NCBI GenBank assembly: GCA_949752735.1
Contig: OX457037.1
Coordinates: 18,481,539 to 18,545,538, forward strand
DNA length: 64,000 nucleotides
Source: Lumbricus terrestris
Taxonomy: Eukaryota > Annelida > Clitellata > Crassiclitellata > Lumbricidae
Reading direction: 5' to 3'
Below the pieces are notes generated by a model. That model ran no database searches. It was not told where the DNA came from and saw only the letters and a program-made list of their open reading frames with translations. The translations under genes were made by a program, and so were the position numbers. Within the stretch, counting starts at the first letter, position 1; each line of letters opens with the position of its first letter. Shown here one piece after another: positions 9,064 to 37,353 of this stretch.

Positions 9064-9400
9064 TGCAGCAACCATCAGGACAAAAGCTTTTTACCAGAGC
9101 ATTTGTCCTGTGATACCATGATGTAGTACCGCCACTGCGTAGCGTATAACGCCTAAAAAGTAATTGGGCTACCGATCAGGACCGTGTGTGCGTGACTCTA
9201 AGATCAGGCGATGGTTGTAAAAGTCCGAGGTTAGTGTAATGAATGGAGAGTTTAGCCATGACTTGTGTTTCATTGCTCAAATACACCTATAAAAACCATA
9301 AAACCTGGATTTTATTGGCATGCATGACAGTCTTGCATGCTACATAGACTACATGCATATCTACAAATATCATAAAATAAAGCAATACGCATAATATACA

Positions 9401-28078: not shown

Positions 28079-28084
28079 CATATT
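28079..28084. repeat. Left target-site duplication of the Polinton (CATATT)
   Basis: CATATT here is identical to 37348-37353. A 6-bp duplication is the known mark of Polinton/Maverick integration. Confidence 0.93.
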
Positions 28085-28131
28085 AGTAGAGGAAATACAA
28101 TGTAGTAAGCCCTTCCACTTTTCTGGCCCGT

Positions 28132-28208
28132 CACGTGACTGTATGACGTCATCTGTAATTTAATACTCTCACTGAAGACCATTGTTTTTGGCCCACTGGG
28201 CTATAAAT
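28132..28208 (+). promoter_or_regulatory. Candidate promoter inside the left TIR
   Basis: CACGTG (E-box) at 28132-28137 and a full CRE-type TGACGTCA at 28144-28151 are followed by CTATAAAT with TATA at 28202, facing the genes. The same trio exists in the right repeat facing inward on the minus strand (37281-37300 and 37225-37232). The motifs are plainly there; promoter activity is inferred. Confidence 0.5.
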
Positions 28209-28265
28209 CGTCACGCTTCACTGATCACGCTCTTTGATCCTTTTGATCTTTTGTTCTTTTGTATT

Positions 28266-28307
<42 letters not shown>

Positions 28308-28406
28308 CTGCAGGGATGCTGAAGGGGTGGGGAAGGGCTGGGGAAGGGGCTGGGGAAGGGGAAGGGCTTGGGAAGGGCTTGGGAAGGGCATGCGCGCCCC
28401 TCCTCC

Positions 28407-28446
28407 CCCTAACCCTAACCCTAACCCTAACCCTAACCCTAACCCT
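28407..28446 (+). repeat. Telomere-type (CCCTAA)n array in left TIR
   Basis: Six full CCCTAA units plus CCCT. The complementary (TTAGGG)n array of the same unit number lies in the right repeat. Confidence 0.95.
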
Positions 28447-28724
28447 CCCCCTCCCCTCCCTCCCCTCCCCTCCCCCTCTCCCTCCCCCTCCCCCTCCTCC
28501 ATGCTTCGTCAGCGCATTTCGATTGCACAGCATCTGCTTAGTCATTCTCACCATTCAGCATATTTTTATAAATAGAACATAGAATAATATATCGCTGCAT
28601 GCGCTAATAATAACCACAATTTATATGGCGCCACACCACTACAAGGAAGCCTATAAGAAGCGCGCTCTTTTCATTAGCAATCATTACATATTGAATCTTC
28701 TAAATAGCAGCAACAGCAGTTGAT

Positions 28725-28847
28725 ATGGGACCTAACACTGGTAAATGCGAAATGGACGTGTGCGGAAACTACAAATGTGAATGTATAATGTGTCAAGACG
28801 AAGATGATGATGATGCGAGCGCTCACATTGAAGATGAAAAGCTGTAA
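28725..28847 (+). CDS. Micro-ORF, 40 aa, cysteine-rich and acidic
   Basis: First open frame of the element. It has five cysteines (C8, C13, C18, C20, C23) followed by an acidic EDDDD run, and stops at TAA 11 bp before the RING ATG in a different frame. The spacing C-x4-C-x4-C-x-C-x2-C hints at a small metal-binding knuckle. It could be a real small protein, an upstream regulatory ORF, or the remains of the RING protein's N-terminus. I do not recognise it. Confidence 0.35.
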   Translation: MGPNTGKCEMDVCGNYKCECIMCQDEDDDDASAHIEDEKL

Positions 28848-28858
28848 AGTATAGTACT

Positions 28859-29050
28859 ATGAAACTTAAAGCGGAGAATGAAAGACTGAAGAAATCTGTT
28901 ATTTGTATAGTCTGTAAGGAAAAGCAAGTGCAGTCATTATCTTTTCCGTGTAGGCATGTGAATGTGTGTTTTCCCTGTGCGGACATTGCAACACACTGTC
29001 CCTCTTGCGGCGAGCGCATTCTTGGAATCGTCAGAATATACCTCGTATAA
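28859..29050 (+). CDS. RING-finger (C3HC4) protein, 63 aa
   Basis: After a short charged helix (about residues 1-12) the protein is almost entirely one RING domain. The ligands are C16-x2-C19, C31-x-H33, C37-x2-C40 and C47-x2-C50. PCRHVNVCFPCA and CPSCGERI resemble the RINGs of IAP and Mind-bomb-type E3 ligases. RING proteins pass ubiquitin from an E2 to a target; here the target is unknown. It is encoded upstream of the packaging ATPase. The stop TAA is part of a TATAAAAA that may drive the next gene. The small size means it could act as an adaptor or dimer partner. The domain call is firm; a role in host-protein turnover is inference. Confidence 0.8.
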   Translation: MKLKAENERLKKSVICIVCKEKQVQSLSFPCRHVNVCFPCADIATHCPSCGERILGIVRIYLV

Positions 29051-29053
29051 AAA
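29046..29053 (+). promoter_or_regulatory. TATA-like box before the ATPase gene
   Basis: TATAAAAA overlaps the RING stop codon and lies 43 bp before the ATPase ATG at 29089. A similar TATAAA precedes the next gene at nearly the same distance. Confidence 0.45.
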
Positions 29054-29088
29054 CAGCGGTATGCTTCAAAAGATATTTACTTTTTAAA

Positions 29089-29703
29089 ATGGACCCAACT
29101 TGGATGCATCCATTCTCTGCTATAATAAGCGGACCCAGTGGTTGTGGAAAAACCAACTTCACTTTACGTTTTATAGATCATTTAGACTATATGGTCAAAC
29201 CTGCAATAGAAAAAATTATATGGTGTTATGGTATATACCAAGAAATCTTCGATAAATACGCCCATGTACAATTTCACGAAGGATTGCCCGACCTGGCTAT
29301 TTTTGACGGCAAGCAAAAGACTCTGCTCATTTTAGACGATCTTATGAGTGAGACGGACGAGAGAGTTACCAAATTATTTACAAAGATTAGTCATCATATG
29401 AATGTTTCTATACTCTACCTGACGCAGAATCTTTTCTACAGCGGAAAGCACTCAAGAACAATCAGTTTGAATGCACATTACTTTGTACTCTTCAAAAATG
29501 TTAGAGACAGCACGCAGGTTTCAATATTAGCACGACAGATGTTTCCCGGCAAGGCAAACTTCATGATAGAAGCCTTCCAAGATGCTACTATGGCGCCTTT
29601 CGGATATCTTTTGGTCGATCTGAGGTCGGAAACTGACGAACGTTGTCGCATAAGGTCAAACATTTTCCCAGGCGAGACGCATTATGTCTATGTAAGGAAA
29701 TGA
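29089..29703 (+). CDS. Packaging ATPase (A32/FtsK-HerA type), 204 aa
   Basis: A P-loop ATPase with Walker A GPSGCGKT (residues 15-22) and Walker B LLILDD (79-84). A conserved TQN (in YLTQNLFY) follows at about residue 109, in the place of a sensor or arginine-finger region. About 200 aa is typical of the Polinton ATPase. Family knowledge: it pumps DNA into preformed capsids and is related to poxvirus A32 and adenovirus IVa2-like motors. A longer frame begins at 28966 but overlaps the RING gene. The ATG at 29089 is preferred because MDPTWMHPFSAIISGPSG places the P-loop close to the N-terminus, as in relatives, and because it follows the TATAAAAA. The gene is intact. Confidence 0.9.
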   Translation: MDPTWMHPFSAIISGPSGCGKTNFTLRFIDHLDYMVKPAIEKIIWCYGIYQEIFDKYAHVQFHEGLPDLAIFDGKQKTLLILDDLMSETDERVTKLFTKISHHMNVSILYLTQNLFYSGKHSRTISLNAHYFVLFKNVRDSTQVSILARQMFPGKANFMIEAFQDATMAPFGYLLVDLRSETDERCRIRSNIFPGETHYVYVRK

Positions 29704-29704
29704 A

Positions 29705-29710
29705 TATAAA
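29705..29710 (+). promoter_or_regulatory. TATA-like box before the 109-aa gene
   Basis: TATAAA lies in the 41-bp gap after the ATPase stop, 40 bp before the next ATG. Same arrangement as 29046-29053. Confidence 0.45.
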
Positions 29711-29744
29711 CGCCTGACTGCGCGACATCTCTCATTCAACCAAA

Positions 29745-30074
29745 ATGTCTGACGCCATTGAGGAGAAGTTTGCGAAACTCAGGCTGCTTAAAGAATCTTC
29801 ACCTAAAGTAAGGAAACGAATTTTAAAGGAGTGTAATTCTTCACTGCTTTGCTGCCTTTGCGAGTGTGCGCTCAACATTTTAAAAGGAACTGTACCTTTG
29901 AAAGTTGCTCAGAAGAAAAGACTCGGTCGATTCAAACACAAGCTGAGAAAGCTTGCATCCAAGAAGACACGTGTTAAAATCAAGAAACGCATAGTCCAGA
30001 CAGGCGGTTTCATAGGCGCCTTACTAACCCCTGTGCTCTCTTTTCTGGGAACATTGTTGAGTAATAAAATATAA
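29745..30074 (+). CDS. Small basic virion-like protein, 109 aa
   Basis: The protein is strongly basic, with K/R-rich blocks at about 19-27 and 57-85. It has a CCLCECALNILKG core (about 36-48) and a hydrophobic C-terminal segment GGFIGALLTPVLSFLGTLL. This layout, a DNA-binding-like body with a hydrophobic tail, recurs in small open frames of invertebrate Polinton-type elements. I believe it is a virion or core component, but the family has no established function that I know. The stop is followed by one T and then the ATG of the next gene. AATAAA at 30063-30068 sits in its last codons and could serve as a poly(A) signal. Confidence 0.7.
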   Translation: MSDAIEEKFAKLRLLKESSPKVRKRILKECNSSLLCCLCECALNILKGTVPLKVAQKKRLGRFKHKLRKLASKKTRVKIKKRIVQTGGFIGALLTPVLSFLGTLLSNKI

Positions 30075-30075
30075 T

Positions 30076-30777
30076 ATGGAGCATACGAAGAAAATGGTTC
30101 TGGTGGAGCCTAGGCAGATAGAGAAATGGAAGGAGACAATGCTAGACAAAACATTATCGAAATTGGATACGCAGATGTACGATATTCTGCATAGGAATAT
30201 TGCAGATGATGATAAGGCCAAATTGTATACCAACAGTTTGAGTCGTTACTTGAACATTGACAAACCCAGCATAGTTACAAAATTCGAAACTAAAGAAAAG
30301 GGGGCGGCGGCGGCGGCGGCGGCGGCGGCGGAGGCGGCGGAATCTACCGAATCTACAGACTCTATCGGCAGCAGCAGCAGCAGCATAGAAGCGCAAGTCT
30401 TGCAGACAGTTCCAAAGAAATGGAAAACACAGGCTGCTCAACTTTTAACGCACATGAAGAGCAATCCAAACTTGGCCTGGAATTCTAAAGGCGAACTTAT
30501 TTTGAAGGATGCAACTATTCCGAAAACACACATGGTCGATTTGGTGAACGATCTTATGAGAAAACGCACGACAGCTTCCCCACCCACCGGCTGGCGACTC
30601 TTGGCCGACGCTCTTAAAGACTCAAACATTCCTCGCGAACTTATAGGAAATAAAGAACGTTGGACCTATATTAACGATTCCACGGACGAAACGACAGCAG
30701 TTACGCCAAAGAGCACTCACGGCAAACAGCAGCTTTCCTCGTTGTCGCCTTCTTCTTCGGCCTGGCTGACTTACTGA
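30076..30777 (+). CDS. Polinton-associated protein of unknown function, 233 aa
   Basis: There are two conserved-looking blocks. The N-terminal 70 residues (VLVEPRQIEKWKE and a helix-rich stretch) and residues about 110-200 (VPKKWKTQAAQLLTHMK, IPKTHMVDLVNDLMRKR, GWRLLADALKDSNIPRELIGN) flank a low-complexity linker with a poly-Ala run from a GCG repeat and a poly-Ser run. Similar two-block proteins sit next to the integrase in related invertebrate elements; their role is unknown to me. The position before the integrase hints at DNA handling. Its TGA shares an A with the integrase ATG (TGATG). The frame is intact and probably length-polymorphic at the GCG tract. Confidence 0.7.
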   Translation: MEHTKKMVLVEPRQIEKWKETMLDKTLSKLDTQMYDILHRNIADDDKAKLYTNSLSRYLNIDKPSIVTKFETKEKGAAAAAAAAAEAAESTESTDSIGSSSSSIEAQVLQTVPKKWKTQAAQLLTHMKSNPNLAWNSKGELILKDATIPKTHMVDLVNDLMRKRTTASPPTGWRLLADALKDSNIPRELIGNKERWTYINDSTDETTAVTPKSTHGKQQLSSLSPSSSAWLTY

Positions 30778-31805
30778 TGGAATCGTACTTCGACCCCAAA
30801 ACACCCGGAAGCTTCGCCGGTGTGAATTCCTTTAAAAAACATTCTGACTTTAAAACTAATGACGTTAAAAATTGGCTGATTAAACAAGATGCGTACACTT
30901 TGCATAAACCTGTTAGGCTGAACTTTAGAAGGCGAAAAACTTTCGCGCCAGGTATTGACAATCTGTGGCAAGCAGACTTGGCGGATCTTTCGGCATTGGC
31001 GAAACATAACGATAAAAATAAATACATTTTAACCTGTATAGATGTCTTGTCTAAATATTCTTGGGCGCTCCCGCTAAAATCAAAGACTGGCGCGGCTCTG
31101 GTCGAAGCCTTTTCATCCATTCTTTTAGAAAGACAGCCGGCTAATTTGCAAACTGACAAGGGGACAGAATTCCTTAATAAACCCTTTCAATCCATGCTTC
31201 GTAAAAATTCTATTCGATTTTACACGTCCGAAAATAGTGACATAAAAGCCTCTGTGGTTGAGAGATTCAATAGAACTCTTAAGACTAGGATGTGGAAATA
31301 CTTTACTTATAATAATACATATAGATATGTAGATATTTTACAAGATCTAGTTCATTCGTACAACAACACTTATCACAGATCTATAGCCATGACACCCAGT
31401 CAGGTTTCTAAGGCTAACGAAAATATTATTATAAAACGATTGTACGGCGAGAAGAAGCGACCAGCCAATTGGAAATACGAAGTGAACGATAAAGTTAGAA
31501 TCGCAAAGGCCAGGATAGCATTCCAGAAGGGATACTTGCCGAGCTGGTCGATGGAAATCTTTAAGATTGTAACTCGTGTGCCTACCGACCCCGTAACCTA
31601 CGAGTTTGAAGATTTAAGTGGTGAAAAAATAAAAGGTAAATTCTACGAATTTGAGCTACAAAGAATTTTAAAGGAGGACGATATTTACACGGTGGAAAAA
31701 ATTCTGAAAAGTCGTAAGCGGCGCGGTAAGACGGAATATTTTGTCAAATGGAGAGGCTATGACGACAAGTTCAACTCCTGGACTCAGGATATATTCAAAG
31801 TCTAG
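30777..31805 (+). CDS. Integrase (RVE fold) with C-terminal chromodomain, 342 aa
   Basis: A retrovirus-type DDE integrase. The catalytic acids are D67 (WQADLADL), D127 (LQTDKGTEF) and E162 (SVVERFNRTLK), with 34 residues between the last two. A canonical HHCC zinc domain is not evident at the N-terminus. Residues about 230-290 form an SH3-like stretch (YEVNDKVRIAK and onward), and residues about 297-338 a chromodomain (YTVEKILKSRKRR, then EYFVKWRGYDDKFNSWT). Chromodomains bind methylated histone tails and can steer integration. Family knowledge: Polinton integrases insert the linear DNA and make 6-bp duplications, as seen at this element's edges. The start is fixed by a TGATG overlap with the previous frame. 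All catalytic residues are present. Confidence 0.93.
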   Translation: MESYFDPKTPGSFAGVNSFKKHSDFKTNDVKNWLIKQDAYTLHKPVRLNFRRRKTFAPGIDNLWQADLADLSALAKHNDKNKYILTCIDVLSKYSWALPLKSKTGAALVEAFSSILLERQPANLQTDKGTEFLNKPFQSMLRKNSIRFYTSENSDIKASVVERFNRTLKTRMWKYFTYNNTYRYVDILQDLVHSYNNTYHRSIAMTPSQVSKANENIIIKRLYGEKKRPANWKYEVNDKVRIAKARIAFQKGYLPSWSMEIFKIVTRVPTDPVTYEFEDLSGEKIKGKFYEFELQRILKEDDIYTVEKILKSRKRRGKTEYFVKWRGYDDKFNSWTQDIFKV

Positions 31806-31844
31806 CAAGAATTTCACACAGTCTGTCAGAGCACGCAAACGACA

Positions 31845-32714
31845 ATGTCGCATTTTTATCTTACTCTTCCAAGCAATAGCTCCATGCAGCATTTTCCCGA
31901 AAATACTACCGCACACTTTACAACGAAGTTGGAAAATGCCATCTCCCTCAAAGGTCGCTGGGAAGTTGCACTTCTGCAAATGCAGTACCCGCACACGTGG
32001 TACAACGTGCAAAGTGACCAGGGCGGCTTTACATTTGAACAAGTTCCTAAAAGAGGAAGCATCGACGCAGTATGCGCAACTATTCACCAATCTTTGCAGC
32101 TGCCCGCCGGGTATTACGAAAATATTGATGCCATAGTAGATGTCATAAATAGGAATATAGAGAATGCTGCAGAATTGCATTCGCTCGTGAAATATCCAAA
32201 ATTTAGATATGATGCGATAACTAAAAGATTCCATGGCAAGATCAATTTCGCTGCACGCGTAACCTTCACATCGCACTTGTGTGATATTTTGGGTATAGAC
32301 GAAAGACATAAAGTTGTCGAAAACAATAATTATGGCACATATTTTTACCATCAGCGTTACGAGGATTATATTAAAGCTTGGGATGAGGTTCCAGATTGGG
32401 AGTGGCAAGCTGATTACGGTTGCGATTTAAAACATAATTTTTCACATATATATGTGTATTGCAATCTGGTTGAATCTGTGGCGCTTGGCGATTCGAAAGC
32501 ACCATTACTTCGCATAGTTAATGTAGAAGATAAAAGCGTCGATACTGTGCACGTTTTGTACAAGTGCGGTATATACGTACCTATACAGCAGAAGAATTTC
32601 GATTCGATAGAAATATATATGAGAGGCAGTAACGGAAAATCGTTCCCATTCGAACATGGAAAGTCGTTCGTTGTACTTCATTTTAGACAGTGTAAAAATT
32701 TCAGTCTTGAGTAA
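31845..32714 (+). CDS. Capsid-associated (penton-like?) protein, paralog 1, 289 aa
   Basis: Begins MSHFYLTLPSNSS and is beta-rich throughout, with FTTKLENAISLKGRWEVALL near the N-terminus and YVPIQQKNFDSIEIYM near the C-terminus. It is a clear paralog of the next gene: start, middle (KFRYDAITKR) and end (APLLRIVNV) match. Such proteins accompany the major capsid gene in related elements. A single jelly-roll minor capsid or penton role is my inference and is not shown by a catalytic or binding motif. A 39-bp gap separates it from the integrase, and only 3 bp follow before the next ATG. The frame is intact. Confidence 0.72.
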   Translation: MSHFYLTLPSNSSMQHFPENTTAHFTTKLENAISLKGRWEVALLQMQYPHTWYNVQSDQGGFTFEQVPKRGSIDAVCATIHQSLQLPAGYYENIDAIVDVINRNIENAAELHSLVKYPKFRYDAITKRFHGKINFAARVTFTSHLCDILGIDERHKVVENNNYGTYFYHQRYEDYIKAWDEVPDWEWQADYGCDLKHNFSHIYVYCNLVESVALGDSKAPLLRIVNVEDKSVDTVHVLYKCGIYVPIQQKNFDSIEIYMRGSNGKSFPFEHGKSFVVLHFRQCKNFSLE

Positions 32715-32717
32715 ATA

Positions 32718-33542
32718 ATGGCGCACTTCTATCTCACTTTGCCTAGCAACAGCTCCGCGGCATTTTATCCGAATAATACTATAGCGCAATTTACAACGCG
32801 TCTGGAGAACCCCATTTCTCTAAGCGGCGATTGGGAGGTTGCCCTTCTAGAATTATTCTATCATCACACGTGGAACAATTTAGACCGGCAAGAAGGCGGA
32901 ATAACATACACGCACGCCACGTTCACCGAAAGTGGATCGATGCAAAGCAATCCCATATTTAAAAGACGTTGGGTTCCGGCCGGCTACTACGAAACAGCTC
33001 AGCAACTTATCGATTACATAAACAAATTTATAAGAGAGGTTGCAGAGGAAAATGATTTGCTCGATTTTCCAAAATTTAGATACGATACAGTAACAAAAAG
33101 ATTGATGGGCGATATAAACAAAGGCACAAAGATTCATTTTTCGCGCGCATTATGTTCGATGCTTGGTATCGATGCTCAGCAGATGCCAATTCTCAACTAC
33201 GGCCAGGACGACGAGGCCATTTTGGAGTTTGTTGGCGATAGAACTTGCGATATAAATCGAGGATTTTCTGCTTTATATATTTATTGCGATGTACTCGAAC
33301 ATGTGCATGTGGGAGACACAAAAGCGCCCTTACTCAGAATAGTTAACGTCGATGGTAATGCTGGCGGCAACGTGCGCACAATCTACGAAAAGCCCGTCTA
33401 CATACCTCTGCAGCAGAAAAATTTCTACTCTATAGAGCTGCATATAAGGACAGACACGGGTGACCCAGTTTCATTCGAAAGCGGAAAGTGCATAGTCACA
33501 CTACACTTCAGGCACTGTAAAATTCCATATCTTTTGCAATGA
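32718..33542 (+). CDS. Capsid-associated (penton-like?) protein, paralog 2, 274 aa
   Basis: This is the tandem paralog of the preceding gene: MAHFYLTLPSNSS, FTTRLENPISLSGDWEVALL, KFRYDTVTKR, APLLRIVNVDG and YIPLQQKNFYSIELHI mirror it in order. The middle (about residues 140-200) is the most divergent part. The stop overlaps the next gene as ATGA (33539-33542). Two diverged copies may form a hetero-oligomeric vertex or have separate spike and base roles. The duplication is plain in the sequence; the role is inferred. Confidence 0.72.
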   Translation: MAHFYLTLPSNSSAAFYPNNTIAQFTTRLENPISLSGDWEVALLELFYHHTWNNLDRQEGGITYTHATFTESGSMQSNPIFKRRWVPAGYYETAQQLIDYINKFIREVAEENDLLDFPKFRYDTVTKRLMGDINKGTKIHFSRALCSMLGIDAQQMPILNYGQDDEAILEFVGDRTCDINRGFSALYIYCDVLEHVHVGDTKAPLLRIVNVDGNAGGNVRTIYEKPVYIPLQQKNFYSIELHIRTDTGDPVSFESGKCIVTLHFRHCKIPYLLQ

Positions 33543-33943
33543 AAAAACCATTCTGTTGCGATGCAAGTCGTTTGGCATACGAAGACTATTATATGCAGCA
33601 AAGTGGTAATGGCATGCCGTTTTTTCAGGGAGCTCGTCTTCAGCGCGGGCATGGAATTGGTAGTTTTCTTAGCGGGCTCTTTAGAAGCGCCTGGCCACTT
33701 ATACAGACTGGCGCTAAAGCACTTGGGAAACAAGCGTTGAGAACGGGTCTTCAGATTGCGAACGATGTGGCGGATGGCGATCCGATCATGGAGGCTGCCA
33801 AGCGTCGCGTGCCAGAAGGTATAAAGGCCTTTACATCTTCAAAAGATTTTAATGTTCAAAGTGGTAGCGGCCGGAAGAGACGTAAGCGGTCTCTGAGAAG
33901 AAATAAGAAAAGAATCAAGGAAGATATATTTGGTGCAGTTTAA
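33539..33943 (+). CDS. Minor virion/core protein (pVI/pX-like), 134 aa
   Basis: A glycine-rich segment and amphipathic helix (GHGIGSFLSGLFRSAWPLIQ, about 38-57) are followed by GKQALRTGLQIANDVADG, and the end is a strongly basic KRRKRSLRRNKKR tail. The layout resembles adenovirus-type pVI or core proteins, where the helix disturbs membranes or contacts hexons and the basic part binds DNA. Homology to a named protein is inferred from layout and position just before the major capsid gene, not demonstrated. An RRV/GSG-type site might be cut by the element's own protease, but I cannot prove it. The start is set by an ATGA overlap. Confidence 0.65.
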   Translation: MKKPFCCDASRLAYEDYYMQQSGNGMPFFQGARLQRGHGIGSFLSGLFRSAWPLIQTGAKALGKQALRTGLQIANDVADGDPIMEAAKRRVPEGIKAFTSSKDFNVQSGSGRKRRKRSLRRNKKRIKEDIFGAV

Positions 33944-33945
33944 AA

Positions 33946-35268
33946 ATGGCCTTCGTTCATCCCCAGTCTTGCGAGTGTGCAAAGAGCGAATTGGATCTTT
34001 TCAGCGTTCCTCCTACGAAGACCAGCATAGAATCTGGTTCGTACGTGGAATATAATCCAATAGCAACGATATCGCAGGGCACACCTATAGAATTCAGCAT
34101 AAGTGGGGCAGGTCAAGATTATATCGATCTGTCCAACACACAGCTGTTCGTCAGAGCGTCTATCATTAGAGCGAATAACGAAGGTACGGATGCAGGAGAT
34201 CACGTTGGACCAGTCAATCTTTTCCTACACAGTCTTTTTTCCGAAGTTGATATAACTCTAAACGACACTCTTGTCACTTCGTCAAATAACACATATGCAT
34301 ATAGAAGCTACCTCGAGACCCTACTCAGTTACGGAACGTCAAGCAAAAATTCACAACTCACCTCTGCTCTCTTTTACAAAGACACTGCAAGCCGCTTCGA
34401 AGAATGCAACCCGCACGATGATGCAGGCACGAACGCTGGATTCAAGAAGCGTAGCGTTCTGACAGACGAAGGCCGCGTGGTCGATATGTTGGGCGGCATT
34501 CACAGCGATCTATTCTTCCAGGAAAAATTCTTGCCAAACGACATTAATATAAAAATACGATTCGTAAGAAATAAAGATTCATTCTGTCTTATGTCCTCGG
34601 CGGCTGGGGCCGCATACAAAGTAAAAATATTGGAATGCAAATTGTATGTCAGAAAAGTCAAGTTAAGTCCATCAGTCTTCCTCGCACACGCGAAGGCGCT
34701 AGAGATTGGAAATCTGAAGTTTCCAATTCGAAGGGCCGTTTGCAAGACTTTTACGGTTCCCAGAGGGAATCTGGACGTTACGCAGGAGTGTCTTTTCACC
34801 GGTCAGCTTCCCACTCGCATCGTTCTTGGTTGTATCGATAATGACTCTTTTAATGGTAGCTATACGAAGAACCCATTCAATTTCAAACACATGAATGTGT
34901 CACAATTAAAAGTATACCTGGACGGGCAGCAACAAAGTATAAAGCCCTTGGAAACTAACTTTGCAACCAATCAGTTTGTAAATGCATATGCTTCCCTCTT
35001 TATGGGGACTGGCAAATGGCAAAGAAACGAAGGCAACGATATTAGCAGAGAAGATTACGCAAACGGATATTGCTTGTACGCATTCGATTTAACACCCGAT
35101 TTAGCAGAGGGCGGCCATTTTAATTTGCTGAAAAGTGGAAATGTGCGAGTCGATATAAAATTTGCACAGGCCTTGGATGCTACCATTAACGTTATTGCAT
35201 TTGCCGAGTTTGAAAACATATTGGAAATAGACAGATCACGCAACGTTCTTTTCGACTACAACAACTAA
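33946..35268 (+). CDS. Major capsid-like protein (F54H12.2-like family), 440 aa
   Basis: The N-terminus has CAKSELDLFSVPPTKTSIES, YVEYNPIATI and IEFSISGAGQDYIDLSNTQL. This is the highly conserved opening of the invertebrate family annotated after C. elegans F54H12.2, which I take to be the major capsid protein of this Polinton group. The 440-aa beta-rich length fits a double jelly-roll shell protein. It starts 3 bp after the stop of the core-like gene and ends 15 bp before the protease gene. Family membership is recognised from the N-terminal block; the double jelly-roll assignment is from family knowledge and needs a structure prediction. The frame is intact. Confidence 0.85.
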   Translation: MAFVHPQSCECAKSELDLFSVPPTKTSIESGSYVEYNPIATISQGTPIEFSISGAGQDYIDLSNTQLFVRASIIRANNEGTDAGDHVGPVNLFLHSLFSEVDITLNDTLVTSSNNTYAYRSYLETLLSYGTSSKNSQLTSALFYKDTASRFEECNPHDDAGTNAGFKKRSVLTDEGRVVDMLGGIHSDLFFQEKFLPNDINIKIRFVRNKDSFCLMSSAAGAAYKVKILECKLYVRKVKLSPSVFLAHAKALEIGNLKFPIRRAVCKTFTVPRGNLDVTQECLFTGQLPTRIVLGCIDNDSFNGSYTKNPFNFKHMNVSQLKVYLDGQQQSIKPLETNFATNQFVNAYASLFMGTGKWQRNEGNDISREDYANGYCLYAFDLTPDLAEGGHFNLLKSGNVRVDIKFAQALDATINVIAFAEFENILEIDRSRNVLFDYNN

Positions 35269-35282
35269 AGAAGAAGAACAAG

Positions 35283-35735
35283 ATGGATGGCATAACAATA
35301 GAAAATTATCTACGAAGAGATAGAAAGTGCGCTTCCATGTTTTTGGGCGTTTTCGCTAGCGACCGACTTCCGTATAGAATAGATAGAAATAAGCCTAGTA
35401 TCCTTGTGTGTAATACAGACAGATACGGCCAGCCTGGGGTACATTGGGTAGTGCTGTATATCGAAAGTCCACTTTATGGCGAATTTTTTGACTCTTTTGG
35501 ACGACCCCCAGACGTTCCATTCAGAACATATTTAAATACTCATTGTTCGTCTTGGATATATACTGGAAAACAGATTCAGAGTATTAGTAGTAGATTTTGC
35601 GGCCATTATTGCATTTTTTACGCTTTGCATAGATCTAGAGGGTATAATGTTAATGCGATTTGCAACATGTTCTCAAGCGACACTGGTCTTAACGATTTTT
35701 TATCGCACCGCTTTGTTTGTGACATGTACAAATAA
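35283..35735 (+). CDS. Adenain-type cysteine protease (C5/Ulp1 fold), 150 aa
   Basis: The catalytic order His-Asp-Gln-Cys is visible. H54 is in GVHWVVLYI, D70 in FFDSFG, Gln at 97 or 99 in GKQIQS, and C106 in RFCGHYCIFYAL. This spacing and the HWV, FDSFG and CGHYC words are characteristic of adenovirus-type virion proteases and Polinton PRO proteins. They mature capsid and core proteins during assembly. The length is slightly below the roughly 200 aa of adenain, as in other Polintons. It is the last gene of the element; its stop codon overlaps the first AATAAA. All catalytic residues are kept. Confidence 0.92.
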   Translation: MDGITIENYLRRDRKCASMFLGVFASDRLPYRIDRNKPSILVCNTDRYGQPGVHWVVLYIESPLYGEFFDSFGRPPDVPFRTYLNTHCSSWIYTGKQIQSISSRFCGHYCIFYALHRSRGYNVNAICNMFSSDTGLNDFLSHRFVCDMYK

Positions 35736-35805
35736 AAAGCTGTTGAAAATAAAAGATGGGTCTTTTTTCATTGCGTTTGCCGTGTGGTTTGTGGTGGTGG
35801 TGGTG
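35731..35805 (+). terminator. Poly(A) signal cluster at the end of the Polinton gene block
   Basis: AATAAA at 35731-35736 overlaps the protease stop, and a second AATAAA lies at 35748-35753. A GT-rich stretch (TGTGGTTTGTGGTGG) follows at about 35780-35805. That is a complete cleavage/polyadenylation arrangement. Confidence 0.75.
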
Positions 35806-36269
35806 ATGATCACTACTCTATGCTAAAGCATATATATATATATATAAAGCCATACATTATAATGCGGGCTGTCTAAGCTGCAGCTGCTCCGCTGCAGCAG
35901 AGGCTAATTATGGTGGCAAAGATTTGGGCGTGTCTACTATACAATGACCCCATCTGCCCAAATTCATCCGAGGTCATAGGAGGTCAGAAGAATGCAGACG
36001 AGCCCAAGCACGCTTGGACGAATGCCGGCAAGTCCAGGCAAGCTTGGACGAGAATTCTGCTGCTGACGTCAGGCTCTAGCAGCTGGTGCGTCCTGAGGAT
36101 GCTTTGCCAGGTGCATGATGATTAATTCTATTATGCTGGTCAGACGAGTGCAGGCTTGCTTGGGCGATTGCAGAGGAGATCAGACGAGAGTAGATGAGCT
36201 TGCGCGAGATTAGAAAATCGTTCAGTTGTTCGTAAGAGTTGGCGAATAGCACACAACTCAAATAAATGA
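35806..36269. other. Polinton 3' non-coding region with AGACGAG/GCTTGGACGA words
   Basis: Holds a (TA)n run, a short hairpin (CTGCAGC...GCTGCAG at about 35880-35900) and irregular repeats of CAAGCTTGGACGA and AGACGAG. No convincing gene was found. Confidence 0.5.
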
Positions 36270-36870
36270 CCAGAAAAAAGAGTTGTACAGAATCGAAAAA
36301 TGTCTCTTATAATTTTAAGCTATACCTCGTCTTATATTCCATGTCCTACAAAGCAAACTACCGTTTTAAAAGAATTGGTTGATGAATTCCTCACAAGTCA
36401 AAACAGAAATTTACAAATCGAACATGTCTCTTATAATTTAAAAAAATAGCCCGCATCTTACGGCGCATGTCCTATAAAGAAATCTGCCGTTTTAAAAGAG
36501 CTGTCTGGCGAATTCCTCACAAGTCAAAACAGACTCTTAAAAATCGAACATGTCTTTTAGTGCATGTGGCGCCATATAAATTGTGTGTATTTAAGCCTAT
36601 GTATCCGGTGTTGAAAATCGAAAGGCGCTGACGAAGCGTGGAGGAGGGGGAAGGGGGAGGAGGAGGGGGAGAGTCAAAATCAAAAGGTATCTCTTATAAT
36701 TTTAAAATATCGCTCGTCTTATAGTACAAAGAAATGATTTGAGAATGACTAAGTCTCTGTATCAGCTGTGCAATCGAAATGCGCTGACGAAGCATGGAGG
36801 AGGGGGAGGGGGAGGATGAGGGGGAGAGTCAAAATCAAAATGTATCTCTTATAGTACAAAGAAATGGTTT
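36270..36870. repeat. Right subterminal tandem arrays of the Polinton
   Basis: Two copies of an approximately 130-bp unit (ATGTCTCTTATAATTT ... GAATTCCTCACAAGTCAAAA) run from 36295 to 36555. They are followed by graded copies of an approximately 120-bp unit that contains GCGCTGACGAAGC and AGGAGGGGGA, at about 36625, 36780 and 36909, the last belonging to the TIR. GTGGCGCCATATAAATTGTG at 36565-36584 is the inverse of a site at 28617-28636, marking older, longer inverted repeats. Confidence 0.75.
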
Positions 36871-37347
36871 GAGAATGACTAAGTCTCTGTATCAGCTGTG
36901 CAATCGAAATGCGCTGACGAAGCATGGAGGAGGGGGAGGGGGAGGGAGAGGGGGAGGGGAGGGGAGGGGAGGGAGGAGGGGAGGGGGAGGGTTAGGGTTA
37001 GGGTTAGGGTTAGGGTTAGGGTTAGGGGGAGGAGGGGCGCGCATGCCCTTCCCAAGCCCTTCCCAAGCCCTTCCCCTTCCCCAGCCCCTTCCCCAGCCCT
37101 TCCCCACCCCTTCCCCACCCCTTCAGCATCCCTGCAGCATCATCATCATCATCATCATCATCATCATAATACAAAAGAACAAAAGATCAAAAGGATCAAA
37201 GAGCGTGATCAGTGAAGCGTGACGATTTATAGCCCAGTGGGCCAAAAACATTGGTCTTCAGTGAGAGTATACATTACAGATGACGTCATACAGTCACGTG
37301 ACGGGCCAGAAAAGTGGAAGGGCTTACTACATTGTATTTCCTCTACT
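36865..37347 (-). repeat. Right terminal inverted repeat of the Polinton
   Basis: Inverse of 28085-28555 with the same block order: GCGCTGACGAAGC, G-rich tract, TTAGGG array, AAGGGCTTGGGAAGG-type repeats, (CAT)n, then the unique end. CRE, E-box and TATA motifs are kept. Confidence 0.9.
36988..37027 (+). repeat. Telomere-type (TTAGGG)n array in right TIR
   Basis: Six full units plus partial ends, matching the left array in unit number. Confidence 0.95.
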
Positions 37348-37353
37348 CATATT
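37348..37353. repeat. Right target-site duplication of the Polinton (CATATT)
   Basis: Exact copy of 28079-28084. Confidence 0.93.

What the first reader, a model, noticed from the sequence alone, without database searches (positions are those of the whole stretch)
28085..37347. Complete, apparently recent Polinton-like element of only 9.3 kb with no replicase
Perfect CATATT target duplications, near-identical inverted repeats and ten uninterrupted open frames show an intact, young element. It has integrase, packaging ATPase, protease and capsid-type genes. I find no polymerase B, helicase or primase in any frame, and the space left between genes is too small to hold one. Autonomous Polintons are about 15-20 kb and encode a protein-primed polymerase. 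This one may rely on a host polymerase or on a helper element in trans, or represent a compact lineage of integrating virus-like elements.
Basis: partly seen in the sequence, partly recalled or inferred. Interest (0 to 1): 0.92.

Follow-up and report, generated by a model that had tools for sequence, protein, structure and literature searches.

The report
Compact virus-like element lacking polymerase
An intact virus-like mobile element that carries shell and integration genes but no DNA-copying enzyme is one of many similar copies in its host genome, which also holds separate small elements carrying the missing enzyme, so the two may work as halves of one system.

Summary
Observation confirmed. 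The element spans 28085-37347 (9,263 bp), with perfect CATATT duplications, near-identical 471/485-bp inverted repeats and ten open frames. [quoted passage not shown] Pfam finds ATPase, protease, integrase plus chromodomain, RING. No polymerase, helicase or primase was found.

It is not a one-off deletion. The 1.06-Gb genome gives 96 scored capsid genes (this one included; 885 candidates), 90 without internal stop. Of 20 siblings whose ends I fetched, nine resolve at 8.4-9.5 kb with exact 6-bp duplications; eleven did not.

The genome also gives 78 polymerase-B hits, none within 30 kb of the 96 capsid genes. In nine polymerase contexts read I found no homologue of the ten proteins; six are TIR-bounded elements of 7.5-12.1 kb with exact 6-bp duplications and AGTAG tips. 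Capsid, integrase and polymerase genes are under purifying selection.

Best reading: a split Polinton, polymerase supplied in trans by polymerase-only elements and integrase the other way. Trans-supply is inferred; host replication or unsampled complete Polintons remain rivals.

The parts
28079..28084 (.). left 6-bp target site duplication CATATT
28085..28555 (+). left terminal inverted repeat, tip AGTAGAGG, with simple-sequence tracts
28407..28446 (+). telomeric tract (CCCTAA)6.7 in the left TIR, oriented like a left chromosome end
   Evidence: host telomere
28859..29050 (+). 63-aa RING finger protein
   Evidence: Pfam zf-C3HC4_3 37.6 bits, cut-off 27
29089..29703 (+). 204-aa A32-type packaging ATPase
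   Evidence: Pfam Pox_A32 24.4 bits, cut-off 22.8
29745..30074 (+). 109-aa basic protein with hydrophobic C-terminus, likely core or minor virion protein (inferred)
   Evidence: neighbour fusion P0199 (by eye)
30076..30777 (+). 233-aa conserved protein of unknown function
   Evidence: 96 homologues, no Pfam match
30777..31805 (+). 342-aa integrase (D67, D127, E162 by motif spacing) with C-terminal chromodomain
31845..32714 (+). 289-aa penton base paralogue A
   Evidence: 45% identical to paralogue B; not modelled itself
32718..33542 (+). 274-aa penton base paralogue B
33539..33943 (+). 134-aa basic protein, likely minor virion protein (inferred)
   Evidence: similar stretch fused to a penton relative in P0309 (by eye)
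33946..35268 (+). [quoted passage not shown]
35283..35735 (+). 150-aa adenain-type cysteine protease
   Evidence: Pfam Peptidase_C5 24.2 bits, cut-off 21.3
36274..36956 (.). right subterminal region with tandem copies (126-130 bp period), partly of the inner TIR; its inner end overlaps the right TIR
36863..37347 (-). right terminal inverted repeat
36988..37027 (+). telomeric tract (AGGGTT)6.7 in the right TIR, oriented like a right chromosome end
37348..37353 (.). right 6-bp target site duplication CATATT

Best explanation
The element is an intact provirus-like member of a young, high-copy lineage of Polinton-class elements that carries no DNA polymerase of its own. Shown: it encodes a full capsid, packaging, maturation and integration set and no recognisable replication enzyme; ten copies with exact duplications have the same compact size; the polymerase-B genes read in the same genome sit in separate elements, eight of nine with a terminal repeat pair, in which none of the ten proteins was found, and the resolved ones end in the same AGTAG tip and make the same 6-bp duplication; the capsid, integrase and polymerase genes are under purifying selection. 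Inferred: the two kinds complement each other in trans. The polymerase elements supply the DNA polymerase that copies the capsid element, and the capsid element supplies the integrase (perhaps also the shell) for the polymerase elements: a two-part, split Polinton.
For: Boundaries, TIR, TSD, ORFs. Protein identities. 96 scored capsid-gene copies (window's included), 94 of 96 full length, 6 of 96 with an internal stop. Nine of 20 sampled siblings resolve at 9247, 9058, 9290, 9241, 9468, 8409, 9088, 9290 and 8552 bp with exact 6-bp duplications. PolB: 78 hits, 4 of 78 with an internal stop, 64 of 78 in frames of at least 1,000 aa; 0 of 96 capsid hits within 30 kb, nearest 61 kb. Eight of nine PolB contexts show a TIR pair, six with exact 6-bp duplications and AGTAGT tips (8047, 7990, 10657, 12108, 7485, 8075 bp); in 0 of 9 was a homologue of the ten proteins found. 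In six contexts the largest listed ORF outside the PolB frame is 194 aa, too short for this kind of integrase in one frame. Tips: positions 1-5 identical between 4 capsid and 7 PolB end types, 41% match at 6-10, 24% beyond 40. Median dN/dS over pairs with dS over 0.02: MCP 0.104 (21 of 28 pairs), INT 0.111 (18 of 28), PolB 0.087 (63 of 66). Neighbours conserved in other records: fused relatives P0199, P0209, P0332, P0309.
Against: No direct evidence of trans-replication or of joint packaging. TIR interiors of the two kinds share no convincing match apart from a telomeric tract in one PolB element; the other hits are short, 69-75% matches to a single end piece, L039. AGTAG may be common to Polinton integrases in general, and two of the eleven tips compared (C2:83.80M and C9:2.66M) were located by searching for that motif. 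Eleven of 20 sampled siblings were not resolved at both ends. Only 9 of 78 PolB contexts were read; a spliced or very divergent integrase or capsid gene there is not excluded, and complete Polintons with other capsid types may exist unsampled. For penton B the seven closest copies give no sign of constraint (dN/dS 0.41-1.63 against the window copy, on 3-7 changes), though all seven pairs with the more distant L008 give 0.07-0.12.
Confidence: 0.55

Rival explanations
1. The capsid element is copied by host machinery only. Excised or linear DNA is replicated by nuclear polymerases; the telomeric tracts in the TIRs, in chromosome-end orientation, could let host telomerase heal its ends so that no protein primer is needed. 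The PolB elements are unrelated fellow travellers.
For: Telomeric runs at 12 of 12 ends of the six resolved copies with the window's TIR type, 3-8 units each; both ends of host contig C12 carry the same repeat in the same orientation. No replication gene found in the element.
Against: Four resolved copies with other TIR types have no run of two or more CCCTAA units, so the tract is not essential to the lineage. The tract lies about 320 bp inside the tip among other simple repeats. How a Polinton or Ginger integrase would excise its element is unexplained (PMC2836005, passages: excision mechanism unknown, possible in theory).
Confidence: 0.25
2. The polymerase comes from complete Polintons (integrase, capsid and PolB together) elsewhere in the genome or from an infecting relative; both small element kinds are their non-autonomous derivatives.
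For: Polintons are described as carrying PolB and integrase together (PMC6431247, PMC11071308, passages); only 91 of 957 PolB candidates and 96 of 885 capsid candidates were scored.
Against: 0 of 96 capsid hits lie within 30 kb of any of 78 PolB hits and in 0 of 9 PolB contexts was the capsid set found. Capsid and integrase genes kept under purifying selection do not fit a passive derivative.
Confidence: 0.17
3. The window copy is an internal deletion of a longer parent with PolB.
For: Such elements are usually 15-20 kb (PMC10120064, passage).
Against: Ten copies in several TIR subfamilies share the compact size; the genes are tightly and openly packed; relatives in other records keep the same junctions.
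Confidence: 0.02

Closest known systems
Polintons / Mavericks (Orthopolintovirales)
   Same: rve integrase, TIRs, 6-bp duplications, double-jelly-roll MCP, penton, A32-type ATPase, adenain-type protease
   Different: 9.3 kb, not 15-20 kb; no protein-primed PolB in the element; the polymerase genes read in this genome sit in separate elements
Adintoviruses / MELD viruses (PMC11071296, passages read)
   Same: integrase with C-terminal chromodomain, hexon, penton, packaging ATPase, adenain; that paper also tells of genomes lacking recognisable PolB and integrase
   Different: this one keeps the integrase and lacks PolB, which is part of the adintovirus definition there
Polymerase-less endogenous viruses of protists (PMC10120064, passages read)
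   Same: many endogenous elements there lack a detectable DNA polymerase
   Different: [quoted passage not shown] here no helicase was found, and polymerase-only elements coexist
Maverick gene array in parasitoid wasps (PMC2646287, passages read; BFVD entry R9XLG5)
   Same: integrase and poxvirus-like packaging gene side by side; a protein recorded under a Cotesia bracovirus is the nearest MCP in the viral structure library, 37% identity
   Different: the wasp array is reported without terminal repeats; whether R9XLG5 belongs to that kind of array was not tested

Membership tests
Polinton / Maverick | rve-type DDE integrase | tested here: met
   Pfam rve 38.0 bits, cut-off 32.6; D67, D127, E162 by spacing
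[quoted passage not shown]
   siblings
[quoted passage not shown]
Polinton / Maverick | penton-type minor capsid protein | tested here: met
   (paralogue B modelled; A by 45% identity)
Polinton / Maverick | packaging ATPase and Ulp1/adenain protease | tested here: met
   both narrowly over Pfam cut-offs
Polinton / Maverick | protein-primed DNA polymerase B in the element | tested here: not met
   siblings
Adintoviridae | PolB with N-terminal OTU-like domain | tested here: not met
   no PolB found in the element
Adintoviridae | integrase with C-terminal chromodomain | tested here: met
   Pfam Chromo 41.3 bits
Adintoviridae | hexon recognisable from reference adintoviruses by BLASTp | not tested
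   no reference hexon was compared by sequence
Bipartite (split) Polinton | complementary gene sets in separate elements with matching ends | tested here: inconclusive
   gene sets complementary in 9 contexts; only the AGTAG tip and the 6-bp duplication are shared throughout
Bipartite (split) Polinton | one part replicates or integrates with the other's enzyme | not testable with these tools
   needs an experiment

The most novel reading that the evidence does not exclude
A bipartite integrating double-stranded DNA virus: one proviral segment type carries capsid, packaging, protease and integrase; the other carries the polymerase; both are high-copy, young and under purifying selection, share integrase-recognised ends and depend on each other. 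Telomeric tracts in some TIRs may add a host-telomere route for end maintenance.
Probability: 0.38. Interest if true: 0.92.

Novelty: new variant of a known kind. Interest (0 to 1): 0.8.

Why it matters
Polintons are described as self-synthesizing. A lineage that keeps the whole virion and integration set, multiplies without a polymerase of its own, and lives beside polymerase-only elements with the same tips would show how an integrating virus can split into interdependent parts, and would make testable how Polinton DNA is actually copied. If the split is real it is a segmented lifestyle that I did not see described for Polintons in my ten paper searches, which cover open-licence papers only.

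Tried and rejected
Rejected: internal deletion (see rivals). Rejected: the weak 'RNA_helicase' and DnaC-loader hits as a replicase; they fall on the packaging ATPase. The 233-aa protein as a replicase: no Pfam match, only weak PHROGs matches of unknown function, 96 homologues without a helpful name; it was not modelled, because the two structure jobs went to the capsid proteins.

Led nowhere: no relatives in IMG/VR, in the bacterial and archaeal genomes or in phage records, collections that hold few or no animal genomes; PDB sequence search with the MCP and its profile and with one PolB; Rfam on the window. Equal longest-contig lengths between homologue tables (32451, 16472, 12970 and 5710 for MCP and 233-aa protein) only suggest co-occurrence. 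Genome-wide integrase and TIR searches did not complete.

Told against my reading: TIR interiors of the two kinds do not match convincingly; telomeric tracts are absent from four resolved copies, and two of the four contig ends read, the starts of C1 and C2, are not telomeric; 11 of 20 siblings and 3 of 9 PolB contexts did not give two clean ends with an exact duplication; sibling L088 has a broken integrase frame and was left out of the integrase dN/dS; penton B among the closest copies shows no constraint. In one search the PolB rows that involve minus-strand loci are invalid (wrong orientation); one search replaces them. One search stopped with an error before its last five copies and gave a wrong tip for the C12 copy; redid all 20 and looked again at 15.
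Full report
1. The observation. The window holds an element at 28085-37347, 9,263 bp long, flanked by the exact 6-bp duplication CATATT (28079-28084 and 37348-37353), with inverted repeats of 471 and 485 bp in which 462 of 472 aligned bases agree, with 20 gap positions. Ten open frames lie on one strand with gaps of 1-41 nt and two small overlaps, covering 6,739 bp; 774 bp on the left and 1,612 bp on the right are non-coding. Chance is no explanation.

3. Relatives in other records. Fused or truncated relatives show the same neighbours: 109-aa with 233-aa protein (P0199), 233-aa with integrase (P0209), integrase chromodomain with penton (P0332), penton with 134-aa protein (P0309) (joins judged by eye). 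Their hosts are mostly unnamed, so I cannot say how many genomes they stand for, but the layout is not peculiar to this copy.

4. Siblings in the same genome. The window lies in a 1,056,305,194-bp assembly of 331 contigs. The MCP search scored 96 of 885 candidates; 96 match, the window's own included, at 86-100% identity, 94 of 96 full length, 6 of 96 with an internal stop. I fetched both end regions of 20 siblings as pieces. Nine of 20 give two matching tips and an exact 6-bp duplication: 9247, 9058, 9290, 9241, 9468, 8409, 9088, 9290 and 8552 bp. The other 11 of 20 were not resolved, most often because one tip was not in the fetched piece. Several TIR types occur; all ten resolved copies, the window's included, have AGTAG tips, one of them (C2:83.80M) located by that motif. 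Integrase pieces of eight siblings: seven intact at 89-99.7% identity, one broken.

5. Where the polymerases are. The Pfam PolB family (PF03175) gives 78 matches among 91 scored of 957 candidates; 4 of 78 have an internal stop and 64 of 78 lie in frames of at least 1,000 aa. None of the 96 MCP hits lies within 30 kb of any of them; the nearest is 61 kb off. I read flanks of 9 of the 78. Eight of nine show a TIR pair; six have AGTAGT tips and an exact 6-bp duplication, with lengths 8047, 7990, 10657, 12108, 7485 and 8075 bp. Of the other three, C12:35.59M has N at the right tip, C9:2.66M lacks an exact duplication, C1:12.14M shows no TIR in the shorter pieces read. tblastn of the ten window proteins finds nothing in any of the nine (limits 1e-3 and 1e-2). 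In the first six, the largest listed frame outside PolB is 194 aa. One PolB protein was checked: PF03175 at 6.7e-26, with a sub-threshold endonuclease-VII match; six small frames from four of these elements have no Pfam match over a cut-off.

6. Selection. Among pairs with dS over 0.02, median dN/dS is 0.104 for MCP (21 of 28 pairs, 8 copies), 0.111 for integrase (18 of 28, the window and 7 siblings; the broken one left out) and 0.087 for the PolB domain (63 of 66, 12 copies). Penton B gives 0.07-0.12 in its seven pairs with L008, but 0.41-1.63 on 3-7 changes between the window and the closest copies. On the whole, virion genes and polymerase are both being kept while the elements multiply.

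7. Telomeric tracts. Both ends of the window copy and of the five resolved copies with the same TIR type carry CCCTAA runs of 3-8 units, oriented as at chromosome ends. Contig C12 ends in this repeat on both sides; the starts of C1 and C2 as assembled do not. Four resolved copies with other TIRs lack runs of two or more. One PolB element (C12:35.59M) has four-unit runs in both TIRs. This may be a chance simple repeat among others, or a seed for end healing; I cannot decide.

8. Mechanism. Shown: complete virion and integration set, no polymerase found, compact family, polymerase in separate elements with the same tip and duplication length. Inferred: polymerase acts in trans on the capsid element; its integrase acts in trans on the polymerase element; perhaps one shell carries both. 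The match of the outer five bases, fading to background, is what a retroviral-type integrase that reads the tip would leave, but could also be common to Polintons at large.

9. What is known. Polintons carry PolB and integrase (PMC6431247, PMC11071308, passages) and such elements are 15-20 kb (PMC10120064, passage). Some lack MCP, ATPase and protease together (PMC4028283, passages). Many protist elements lack a detectable polymerase (PMC10120064, passages). Genomes with adenovirus-type virion genes but without recognisable PolB and integrase are told of in PMC11071296 (passages). Other passages read: PMC10675110, PMC8097293, PMC8363768, PMC2836005, PMC2646287; of PMC3665748 only a reference entry; the adintovirus paper PMC8502044 is not held. 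Other papers were seen only as search listings. In ten searches I saw no account of a split Polinton; subscription papers and repeat databases were not covered.

10. Verdict. I file it as a polymerase-less variant of the Polinton kind, not as a canonical Polinton, because PolB was tested for and not found.

Noticed in passing
28407-28446 and 36988-37027; L081, L082: Host-telomere repeats sit inside both TIRs in chromosome-end orientation; also in the five resolved siblings of the same TIR type and in one PolB element.
   Followed up: partly
28859-35735: Ten genes packed with gaps of 1-41 nt and two overlaps; how a eukaryotic cell expresses them (splicing, reinitiation) is open.
   Followed up: no
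36274-36956: Tandem copies of 126-130 bp that include inner TIR sequence, arranged differently in some siblings.
   Followed up: partly
L049-L078 (PolB contexts): High-copy polymerase-only elements with long TIRs (about 0.4-1.1 kb) in which no integrase was found; worth study in their own right.
   Followed up: partly
contig C3 of G000: None of the 96 capsid hits and none of the 78 PolB hits lies on C3, although C2 and C4, its neighbours in numbering, bear 14 and 10, and 5 and 8; C3's length and whether it was searched in full are unknown to me.
   Followed up: no
P0332: An integrase-penton fusion recorded under a Bacteroidota MAG, probably eukaryotic contamination.
   Followed up: no
window assembly G000: About 1.06 Gb, hits on C1-C19 and a few small contigs: perhaps a bivalve mollusc (inference only, not tested).
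   Followed up: no
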